A stretch of 64,000 nucleotides of DNA from Methanolobus psychrophilus R15 (GTDB lineage: Archaea > Halobacteriota > Methanosarcinia > Methanosarcinales > Methanosarcinaceae). The notes under the pieces were generated by a model, which saw only the letters and a list, made by a program, of their open reading frames with translations, had not been told where the DNA came from and did not search any database. Position numbers and translations under genes: made by a program. Where the stretch lies: assembly GCA_000306725.1 (NCBI GenBank), contig CP003083.1, positions 2,964,042-3,028,041 of the forward strand, given 5' to 3'. Below are positions 25,363 through 63,437 of this stretch, in pieces (position 1 is the stretch's first letter; every line of letters starts with the position of its first letter).

Positions 25363-26104
25363 GGCTCTGTAGAAAACCTATTTCCTGCTGAAAACTACTT
25401 GGTATTTTAAAAAGGATAAAACCCCAAAGTGTTAGTTGCCTACGAAAACACAAAGGGGATGATTAGTGTTTTGTTCCATATCTTTGATCTGGAACTCCCA
25501 TTGAATCTCTGATTTAATGGCATGCCTAACAAGGAACTCATCTTAAAACTATAAACACCATCTCTTATACTTGTATTATGAGGATGTTAATGGAATTCAG
25601 AGAACTCCTGATGAACAATGGAAGTTCATTAGACCACATTTACCACCACAACCTATTGTCGGTAGAAAGAGAGCTGAGAACTTCATTTATCAGCTGTATT
25701 CTCTTTGTCCTTATAACTGGTTGTAGGTGGGGAGATATGCCGCAATGTTATGGTTCCTGTGTAACTGCATGGAGAAGGCTAAAAAGGTGGTCAGAAGAAG
25801 GAATCTGGGACGAGATAATGGAATCCCTTCGGAATTCCGCTTACAATGATGCTAAGTTCTCTATGGACATTGTATGTGTTGATAGTACTTTTGTCGAAAC
25901 TAAAAAAGGGAGAAGATACCGCATACAACGGTCATAAGAGGAGGAATGGAATAAAGATCCATGCCTGTGTAAGCTGTGAAGGATTTCCTTTGACCATTCA
26001 AGTATCTAATGGAGCAGAGCATGATAGGAAACATTTCATTGAAGTTATGGAAGATATCAGGGTCAAGACTAGCAGACAAGGCTATTATTCAATACGAAGG
26101 AATT
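25363..26104 (+). mobile_element. Decayed IS5-type insertion sequence
   Basis: The left end is GGCTCTGTAGAAA at 25363-25375, the same end sequence that bounds the unit at 61841-63287. The transposase region follows, frameshifted. The right end is missing: homology stops at about 26100 against the 3' end of the antiporter gene, so the element was truncated there. Confidence 0.65.
25575..26104 (+). pseudogene. IS5-family transposase, frameshifted and truncated
   Basis: At least two frameshifts. The N-terminal DEQWKFIRPHLPPQP segment (about 25605-25655) is in one frame, LITGCRWGDMP ... AWRRLKRWSEEGIWD and the first Asp region VCVDSTFVE in the next (to about 25915), and NGHKRRNGIKIH ... NGAEHD in a third. 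The last recognisable residues are the ...YYSIRR stretch near 26090. The C-terminal catalytic Glu region is absent. Not functional. Confidence 0.8.
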
Positions 26105-60835: not shown

Positions 60836-61017
60836 ATGTTTACTTAATACAGTGCCTATTGTATCAACAGAAATTTGAGATAGTACGTTGCACATTTACG
60901 ATTTATTCAGATATTGTATATATTATAAAAATTCGATTTAATTCAATATAAATAGCAATAACATTATAATCGATGATTAAATTTTTGAAGAAACAACTAC
61001 TTGTATGGAGTGTTTAA

Positions 61018-61803
61018 TTGAAGCAACTACTACTTGATGTGATGTTTGCCTCTGATAAGAGAAAAGAGGTTTTATTGCTGTTAAATGAGTGCCCTCAGGA
61101 GATGGAATATCTCGTAAAATGTCTTGGTACTAATAGACAGGCATTACTTCCTCAGGTAAAAATACTTGAGGGACATTATCTTATTTCCCATCAAAAAGAT
61201 GTCTACGAGCTGACATCTATCGGAAAACTTCTAGTTGATGAATTCATCCCTTTGCTAGGTACAATTGAATTTTTTAATGTTGATATTGAATACCTGGGAA
61301 CTCAAAAACTCAAGTTCATACCTCCTCACCTTTTGAAAAGGGTAAAGGAAATTGGAAGCAGTGAGGTTATAACTCCTGAGCTAGCAGAAATGTATGACCT
61401 TAATGAAAAGTTCCATGAAACCTCAAAAAATTCCAAGTCAGTATATATAGTGTCTTCATTCATATACCCAAATTTCTCTGAATTATCTCTTGATCTTATA
61501 CGTAGCAATGTAGAAGTGCACTTTATCATTTCTCATGGATTGTTGGACAAACTGAAGGGACATAAATATGTTAATGTTAATAAACTTCTAGAGAGCAATC
61601 TGATTCATATTTATGTATATTCAAAAGAGTTAGATTTCCTTTTTATGGGCTACAATGATTATTACCTGATAGTAAACCCTCTGTCACAGGATGGGACAAC
61701 TGACCGTAAATATATTATGTCCAGTAAAAAAGAGGCTCTTATATGGGGACACGATTTCTTTGAATATTATCTGAAAGACTCAACGCCAATCACAGAACTT
61801 TAA
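61018..61803 (+). CDS. Winged-helix regulator with FilR1 (DUF1724) domain
   Basis: 261 residues from a TTG at 61018; the region upstream is very AT-rich with TATA-like TATAAATAG near 60945. Residues ~10-80 are a winged helix (EVLLLLNECPQEMEYLVKCL, then TNRQALLPQVKILEGHYLI). Residues ~120-255 form the FilR1/DUF1724 domain (SKSVYIVSSFIYPNFSELS; VHFIISHGLLDKL; LDFLFMGYNDYYLIVNPLS). This family controls methyltransferase and methanogenesis genes in Methanosarcinales. Its targets are not adjacent. Confidence 0.85.
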   Translation: MKQLLLDVMFASDKRKEVLLLLNECPQEMEYLVKCLGTNRQALLPQVKILEGHYLISHQKDVYELTSIGKLLVDEFIPLLGTIEFFNVDIEYLGTQKLKFIPPHLLKRVKEIGSSEVITPELAEMYDLNEKFHETSKNSKSVYIVSSFIYPNFSELSLDLIRSNVEVHFIISHGLLDKLKGHKYVNVNKLLESNLIHIYVYSKELDFLFMGYNDYYLIVNPLSQDGTTDRKYIMSSKKEALIWGHDFFEYYLKDSTPITEL

Positions 61804-61960
61804 TCAAAACATTGTTGCTCTAAAAAATTATTGGTTTACGGGCTCTGTAGAAACCTATGAAATTACTATCTATAACTAAAATTTGGAAAAAACAATCACT
61901 ATTCTGGACAAAGTATAGAAGTTTTACTGACTTGTATAATCGCTTGAATTTAGAGGAATT

Positions 61961-62272
61961 CTACAGAGCTTTGGTGATTTCACCAAGGATTTCCGGTTTG
62001 GAAGTCAACGCGAGGAGCTCCAACTCGTCTTTCGGATTAAAACCATAAGAGTGGAAGTTCAGAATCTTACCGTTGGCGACCAGGCGAGCCTTGTTGTTCC
62101 ATGGGTAGGCGGCAGTAAACTCGAGGGTGTCCTGCTTGATCTTTTTCGTTGGGTCATCCATTGAAGGGATGAAAGAAAGCAGATTGTACATGCAGACGTG
62201 ATTCGCCTCGAACATGCGCTCACCACGACGTAACCCTTTTCGAGAGCTCCGCCCGGTAAACTCGTATAGTTT
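61961..62272 (-). pseudogene. Gene fragment ending in the internal transposon end
   Basis: About 100 codons of protein-like sequence (EFTGRSSRKGLRRGERMFEA, FTAAYPWNNKARLVANGKIL, GFNPKDELELL). The frame has no start at its upper end, and its stop codon TAG is supplied by the CTACAGAGCT transposon end. Family not recognised. Looks like an internal slice of a bacterial-type gene caught in the element. Confidence 0.5.
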
Positions 62273-62318
62273 TTACTTCTTCAGCTAACTTTCTTTCATC
62301 TATTTTCCAATTCATCTA

Positions 62319-62371
62319 TAGGATCCGTCGTATATTTTTTCCTCGTTGTCAAAAACTACGACCAACATTCA
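62319..62371 (-). pseudogene. Duplicate of the first ~17 codons of the DUF1269-type gene
   Basis: Minus strand encodes MLVVVFDNEEKIYDGS, nearly the same as the start of the gene at 62385-63143 (MLVVVFDNEKKAYDGS). About 50 bases match, and the similarity then stops. It shows that two copies once lay in tandem and all but the 5' tip of the downstream copy was deleted. Confidence 0.7.
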
Positions 62372-62384
62372 TCCAAAACTTGTC

Positions 62385-63143
62385 CTAGTCTTCCGAGGTC
62401 TTTTTCAATTTATCTTTAATCTCGGCGATTCTTTTTTCAATAGCTGCCTTTGCCTTACCCTTATCCTCTGCTGCTCTCTTCTCTAAAGCCTTCACCTTAG
62501 CTTTGGCCTCTTTTTCCCGCTGTTCCGACCACTGTTTTGCCTGCTCTGCCTTAGCATCCAGCTTCTGATTCAAATCGTCAATCTTGGTTTGAAGCTTGGC
62601 TTTATCTTCTGCCAGCGATTTGGCTTGCTCTGCTTTCAACTGAGCAACGTCCGCCTTGATAGCTGCCACTTCCCGAGCATTTTGTTCGTCAACAACATCC
62701 CTTCGTTCGATGCGAAATACGGTGCCTCCTAACGCTTCCATTTTGGTATCAACAGGAATTACCCATTCTTCGCTGATTTCTGAAACTATCGCCCATTTGC
62801 CAGGTGTTAGTTTGGCAGACACATCATCAAGGAATTCTGCGTTGACTCCTGCTCGACTCATGTCCCAGATGCTCCCCGCAAAGGTTCCCCCAACAGCGCC
62901 AACGGCAACGCCGATTGGTCCTCCGAGAAGTCCGATTAGAGCACCGATTGCGGTTCCGCTAACTGTACTGATCGGAAAGTCTTCCCCCATCTGCTTTATG
63001 ACAACTGTGCCATCATCATTTTTCTCTATTACGGCTTCGGAATAAACGGAAATGCTGCCTTCGAAATCAAGTGTCTTCAATGCTATGGATCCGTCGTATG
63101 CTTTTTTCTCGTTGTCAAAAACTACTACCAACATTCTTTCCAT
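62385..63143 (-). CDS. DUF1269-type glycine-zipper protein with coiled-coil tail
   Basis: 252 residues (start at 63143, or at 63134). Residues 1-155 match the DUF1269 layout: MLVVVFDNEKKAYDGS, YSEAVIEKNDDGTVVIK, a Gly-zipper membrane hairpin (TAIGALIGLLGGPIGVAVGA), then LTPGKWAIVSEISEEW. Residues 160-252 are a Lys/Glu/Ala coiled coil. The family is common in bacteria; composition here differs from neighbours, fitting transfer. It is the only intact gene in the transposon-like unit. Function unknown; membrane association likely. Confidence 0.8.
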   Translation of the reverse strand: MERMLVVVFDNEKKAYDGSIALKTLDFEGSISVYSEAVIEKNDDGTVVIKQMGEDFPISTVSGTAIGALIGLLGGPIGVAVGAVGGTFAGSIWDMSRAGVNAEFLDDVSAKLTPGKWAIVSEISEEWVIPVDTKMEALGGTVFRIERRDVVDEQNAREVAAIKADVAQLKAEQAKSLAEDKAKLQTKIDDLNQKLDAKAEQAKQWSEQREKEAKAKVKALEKRAAEDKGKAKAAIEKRIAEIKDKLKKTSED

Positions 63144-63346
63144 TGTTTGTTCTCCCCCTTATGTACTATATTCACTGGATCATTCGCCCCAGTGGTATCT
63201 ATGCAACATAGCTTTTTTTTGATAGATAGAAACCTACAAGTCCTATCAATAAAATCTTTGCGAAACATTTAGGATATCTACAGAGCCGGTTTACGAGAAC
63301 GTTTTATACGAGAAAAACCTTTTCTCACTTGATTAAGAATTAGGAT

Positions 63347-63437
63347 GAGGCGCCTGGAAACCACCACGCTTTAAGGCGCCTCTCTCCTAACGAATCCGAG
63401 ACTGCTGTACCGTACATCCGCCTTGGCCGTACAGCAG
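63347..63437. ncRNA. Two consecutive 9-bp hairpins with 18-nt loops
   Basis: GAGGCGCCT (63347-63355) pairs with AGGCGCCTC (63374-63382), loop 18. CTGCTGTAC (63402-63410) pairs with GTACAGCAG (63429-63437), loop 18. Both stems are perfect and equally built, 19 bases apart, in otherwise AT-rich DNA. No protein frame crosses them. May be a structured RNA or a recombination or protein-binding site. Confidence 0.5.

What the first reader, a model, noticed from the sequence alone, without database searches (positions are those of the whole stretch)
61833..63295. Passenger transposon: IS5-type ends and 8-bp target repeat around a bacterial-type DUF1269 gene
Inverted ends GGCTCTGTAGA bound 1447 bases, flanked by perfect GGTTTACG repeats, with no transposase inside. 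The same end starts the decayed IS at 25.4 kb, so a related transposase could have moved it. The internal extra ends at 61961 and 63227 suggest a mini-element that captured foreign DNA by using a distant end.
Basis: partly seen in the sequence, partly recalled or inferred. Interest (0 to 1): 0.72.

Follow-up and report, generated by a model that had tools for sequence, protein, structure and literature searches.

The report
Gene-carrying mini-transposon in a methanogen
A 1.4-kb piece of DNA carrying a bacterial-type gene was moved as a unit into a methanogen chromosome by borrowed transposon ends, one from a complete miniature transposon and the other a solitary distant end; two similar elements turned up, one in the same genome and one in another species of the genus.

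Summary
Window 61841-63287 has perfect 11-bp inverted ends and a perfect 8-bp repeat GGTTTACG; a 90%-identical paralogous locus in the same genome is the precise empty site, with a single GGTTTACG. The matching autonomous element exists: an IS5-type IS (1001 bp, own 8-bp repeat, apparently intact transposase) with the same two end types. The first 130 bp are a complete miniature element (MITE), widespread in the genus, whose inner end is altered at its terminal base. The target repeat flanks only the outermost ends, so MITE + passenger + solitary right end moved as one unit. The passenger is an intact DUF1269 gene (nearest full-length relatives 51-59%, Acidobacteria), a relic of a second DUF1269 copy and an oleate-hydratase fragment. 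A relative carries the right end plus gene start at another locus. Two more elements of this design were found: 2943 bp with peptidoglycan-binding and phospholipase-D-like genes (same genome) and 2110 bp in another species, both with empty sites in relatives. It works like a mobile insertion cassette or MITE-bounded composite, a kind known in bacteria; I found no archaeal description in the papers searched. Transposition itself was not tested.

The parts
61833..61840 (.). left target repeat GGTTTACG
61841..61970 (+). complete MITE (130 bp); outer end R-type GGCTCTGTAGAAACCTA at 61841
   Evidence: aligns over its whole length with MITEs of the same and other genomes
61953..61970 (-). inner L-type end of the MITE, first base altered (AGCTCTGTAGAATTCCTC), not followed by the target repeat
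61971..62260 (-). frameshifted fragment of an oleate hydratase (MCRA) gene
   Evidence: PF06100 E 4.6e-9, profile 62-137 of 495; frames
62316..62370 (-). relic of the start of a second DUF1269 gene (MLVVVFDNEEKIYDGS)
   Evidence: 91% over 55 bp with 63083-63136, frame
62385..63143 (-). intact passenger gene, 252 aa, DUF1269
   Evidence: PF06897 E 1.7e-9; full-length Acidobacteria relatives 51-59%
63144..63287 (-). right arm: upstream region of the passenger gene and solitary L-type end GGCTCTGTAGATATCC (63270-63287)
   Evidence: right arm plus gene start, 182 bp, 90% identical in G009 at another locus
63288..63295 (.). right target repeat GGTTTACG
61018..61803 (+). target context: FilR1-type regulator gene; the insertion begins just after it (target repeat about 30 bp past the stop codon)
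   Evidence: PF08350 E 1.5e-20; paralog at G000:C1:601040
25363..25473 (+). remnant (R-type end) of the same IS family elsewhere in the window
   Evidence: 87% over 111 bp

Best explanation
This is a transposase-less passenger element. Its ends are the outer R-type end of a complete MITE and a solitary L-type end 1.3 kb away, which together imitate the two ends of an IS5-type IS. The transposase of such an IS, acting in trans, moved MITE, passenger DNA and distant end as one unit into the region just downstream of a FilR1-type gene and made an 8-bp target repeat (the insertion is shown by repeat and empty site; the enzyme is inferred from the ends). Inferred too: the altered terminal base of the inner MITE end weakened it, so that the distant end was used and the adjacent bacterial-type DNA became cargo. 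Which IS copy supplied the enzyme, and whether the element can still move, are not shown.
For: Exact empty site with one GGTTTACG in a 90%-identical paralog of the same genome. An IS5-type IS with the same L and R ends and its own 8-bp repeat TGTCATTA. The left 130 bp belong to a genus-wide MITE family. The target repeat flanks the outer ends and not the MITE alone. The right arm with the gene start occurs at a different locus in G009 with the same outer boundary. Two further elements of the same plan: G000:C1:1575121-1578063 (MITE, PG-binding and PLD-like genes, 80-bp IS end, repeat 7/8, empty site in G022, cargo 97% identical at another G022 locus) and G005:C1:176321-178430 (two MITEs, 401-aa gene, repeat 7/8, empty site in G025).
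Against: No transposition was observed. The empty site of the window element is a paralog, not an allele of another strain. No second complete copy of the window element is known. The right arm beyond about 18 bp is unlike the IS or the MITE. In the 2110-bp element one inner end is intact, so the lost-inner-end idea is not general. The repeat of that element is A-rich and imperfect.
Confidence: 0.86

Rival explanations
1. In-place growth: a MITE inserted downstream of the FilR1-type gene with GGTTTACG, and the cargo came later, into or next to the MITE, by recombination, so that the repeat now flanks both.
For: Repeat and empty site cannot by themselves tell a one-step insertion from later growth inside the ends.
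Against: The left MITE is complete with both ends, so a MITE that was merely split would leave no inner end. The right arm is linked to the gene start at an unrelated locus in G009. Two independent elements have the same plan, and the cargo of one lies elsewhere in G022.
Confidence: 0.1
2. Remnant of an autonomous transposon: a longer IS or transposon whose transposase gene was deleted, so that the DUF1269 gene was always an accessory gene of a complete transposon.
For: Transposons with accessory genes exist; the ends are those of an IS.
Against: No copy of the IS with these genes was seen among the copies examined; no trace of transposase inside the element; the cargo differs between the three elements, while the MITE is shared.
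Confidence: 0.04
3. Chance: unrelated end-like sequences and a fortuitous 8-bp repeat.
For: Degenerate matches to the 11-mer are common in the window (27 with up to 2 mismatches against 15 expected), and end pairs without repeats are common.
Against: Exact 11-mers, exact repeat and an empty site cut at exactly the repeat.
Confidence: 0.005

Closest known systems
Mobile insertion cassettes (MICs)
   Same: IS ends and target repeats around passenger DNA without a transposase; can be activated by a cognate transposase of a related IS (as described in PMC3129680)
   Different: One end is a whole MITE, the IS is of IS5 type, and the host is a methanogen
TIME-COMP elements (composites bounded by Tn3-derived miniature elements)
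   Same: Miniature elements at the ends move intervening DNA; the 2110-bp G005 element with two MITEs in the same orientation has the same layout as TIME-COMP2 (PMC4133298; PMC13367494)
   Different: Ends are of IS5 type with 8-bp repeats and not Tn3 type with 5-bp repeats; in two of three elements one side is a solitary end; mobility not tested here
IS5-family insertion sequences (NCBIfam NF033579)
   Same: The L and R ends and the 8-bp target repeat are those of the IS at G000:C1:636138-637138
   Different: The window element has no transposase
Transporter ISs (IS copies with passenger genes)
   Same: IS ends carrying genes unrelated to transposition (PMC3129680)
   Different: Transporter ISs are IS copies with added genes; here the transposase is absent and a MITE is present

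Membership tests
Mobile insertion cassette (MIC) | terminal inverted repeats of a known IS | tested here: met
   R-type end at 61841 and L-type end at 63287 as in the IS at 636138-637138
Mobile insertion cassette (MIC) | passenger gene and no transposase inside | tested here: met
   DUF1269 gene; no transposase ORF or IS body inside
Mobile insertion cassette (MIC) | target-site repeat and empty site | tested here: met
   GGTTTACG on both sides, single in the paralogous empty site
Mobile insertion cassette (MIC) | mobilised in trans by the related transposase | not testable with these tools
   A candidate transposase is present; no assay
MITE-bounded composite (TIME-COMP-like) | a MITE at each end | tested here: not met
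   Window element: complete MITE at the left only. Met by the G005 element
Transporter IS | transposase of the IS present together with passenger genes | tested here: not met
   No transposase inside
IS5-family origin of the ends | an IS5-family transposase between the same ends elsewhere | tested here: met
   NF033579 227.6 bits, cut-off 140, in the 1001-bp IS
IS5 family, ISH1 group | 8-bp target repeat and group-specific transposase | tested here: inconclusive
   8-bp repeats met; the link of 8-bp repeats to this group is from memory and no group models were run

The most novel reading that the evidence does not exclude
IS5-type miniature elements that pair one of their ends with a distant end are a recurrent route by which methanogens of this genus pick up and shuffle single bacterial-type genes, which would help explain why transferred bacterial segments in related archaea are about one gene long.
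Probability: 0.25. Interest if true: 0.65.

Novelty: new member of a known kind. Interest (0 to 1): 0.47.

Why it matters
Many bacterial genes have entered Methanosarcina-type genomes, in segments of typically 1200-1300 bp, and what limits the segment length is open (PMC4455057). Three cargo elements of 1.4-2.9 kb with target repeats and empty sites give a concrete, testable vehicle for moving such genes within and between archaeal genomes. They do not show how the DNA crosses from bacteria to archaea.

Tried and rejected
A complete second copy of the window element: none in the own genome or the relatives searched. Cargo donor: only 51-59% relatives in Acidobacteria, no DUF1269 match on plasmids, no oleate-hydratase relative in viral contigs. 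End pairs first taken as candidates and dropped: G002 3165-bp pairs are IS copies with a group-II-intron-like insert; G007:C2:2219516-2222359 holds transposase-like ORFs and not cargo; end pairs in G013:C12 around a FilR1-type and other genes, in G026:C8 and at G000:C1:1719428-1721369 lack target repeats. The inner end at 63227 was not upheld. No Rfam match near the insertion.

Full report
What is there. The window belongs to a single-contig 3,072,769-bp genome.

Empty site. Window 60902-61840 and 63288-63401 match G000:C1:601040-601978 (90%) and 601971-602085 (86%). The two matches overlap by 8 bases, which are one GGTTTACG. The alignment runs through the joint without a gap. The insertion is therefore exactly 1447 bp plus one 8-bp repeat. 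The empty site is a paralogous regulator locus of the same genome, not an allele of another strain.

The ends have an owner. G000:C1:636138-637138 is a 1001-bp IS with its own repeat TGTCATTA and a transposase with PF01609 that passes the NCBIfam cut-off for an IS5-family model. Its ends differ slightly: L-type GGCTCTGTAGAAATCCTC and R-type GGCTCTGTAGAAAACCTA. Relatives hold further copies, some with perfect 8-bp repeats. Short elements of about 132 bp carry one end of each type and occur widely in the genus.

The window element is one of these MITEs plus cargo plus a distant end. 61841-61970 aligns with the MITEs over its whole length. Its outer end is R-type. Its inner end is L-type but begins with A instead of G and is followed by TTGGTGAT, not by the repeat. 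The L-type end at 63287 takes the place of the inner end, so the outer pair has the R plus L arrangement of the IS.

Cargo. The 252-aa DUF1269 protein has full-length relatives at 51-59% in Acidobacteria MAGs. In 294 genomes of the same phylum the best other match is 37% over half the protein. Next to it lie a relic of a second DUF1269 start and a frameshifted oleate-hydratase fragment; that family has no other match in the own genome or in any of 59 relatives. G009 has 182 bp of right arm and gene start at an unrelated place, 90% identical and ending at the same base, so gene start and right end have been linked at more than one locus.

Two more elements. G000:C1:1575121-1578063 (2943 bp) has a MITE at the left with a decayed inner end, a peptidoglycan-binding gene and a 575-aa phospholipase-D-like gene, 80 bp of the IS at the right, and repeats GCTTTTTG and ACTTTTTG. 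G022 has the empty site, and its copy of the cargo, 97% identical, lies elsewhere, next to a FilR1-type gene. G005:C1:176321-178430 (2110 bp) has two MITEs around a 401-aa gene without a Pfam match, repeats AAAAAACT and AAAAAATT, and an empty site in G025. In none of the three does a single MITE have its own target repeat.

Chance. Over the loci in hand, left and right flanks taken from all ends agree with at most one mismatch in under 1% of combinations, whereas 8 of 41 long cis pairs do so. Of those eight, four are IS copies with an intron-like insert, one is another transposase-bearing element and three are the cargo elements. Pairs without a repeat are common, so ends alone prove nothing. 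Many loci were fetched because they held end pairs, so these rates are only a guide.

Mechanism. Shown: insertion of the unit with an 8-bp repeat, ends of an IS5-type IS, and a complete MITE at one side. Inferred: mobilisation in trans by such an IS, and weakening of the inner end as the reason for using the distant end. The second inference fits two of the three elements; in the G005 element one inner end is intact.

What is known. Transposase-less cassettes moved by a related IS are the mobile insertion cassettes named in PMC3129680. Composites of two miniature elements were shown to transpose for Tn3-derived TIMEs (PMC4133298; PMC13367494). A review of prokaryotic MITEs lists archaeal MITEs and mobilisation of genes in bacteria (PMC10969869). 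In the paper searches made I saw no archaeal example of cargo mobilisation, but most subscription papers are not held, so priority cannot be claimed.

Verdict. The element is a new member of a known kind. What adds interest is that the design recurs with different cargo, in an archaeon, with bacterial-type genes in at least the window element.

Noticed in passing
L058:2139-3139 and L112, L113, L115, L116, L117, L119: The transposase frame of this IS5-type IS has no stop codon inside the element: it reads ...RISTEP through the L end and stops 3-105 codons later in target DNA, in seven copies from six genomes checked.
   Followed up: partly
L100, L101, L102, L104 (G002): Several copies of the IS in one genome carry what looks like a 2.15-kb group II intron (514-aa reverse-transcriptase-like ORF) in the transposase near codon 267; four have their own perfect 8-bp target repeats.
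   Followed up: partly
window 63341-63399: A stretch with GAGGCGCC...GGCGCCTC arms downstream of the FilR1-type gene is up to 95% conserved in several genomes of the genus; no Rfam match. The insertion lies between the gene and this stretch.
   Followed up: no
window 63173-63194: Inverted repeat CACTGG/CCAGTG upstream of the DUF1269 gene, kept in the G009 copy (L054); possibly an operator.
   Followed up: no
window about 54384; L069:2881-2998: A repeat family of about 118 bp, found in many genomes of the genus, lies next to the IS end in the 2943-bp element and also in this window.
   Followed up: no
L097:3550-6793 (G022:C26): The PG-binding/PLD gene pair sits directly downstream of a FilR1-type gene in G022, as the DUF1269 element does in the window; whether regions 3' of FilR1-type genes are preferred targets is open.
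   Followed up: no
L124:3643-3994; L122:517-3360 (G007): A second miniature family of about 350 bp with L-type ends on both sides, and a 2844-bp element with related ends, a perfect 8-bp repeat and transposase-like ORFs.
   Followed up: partly
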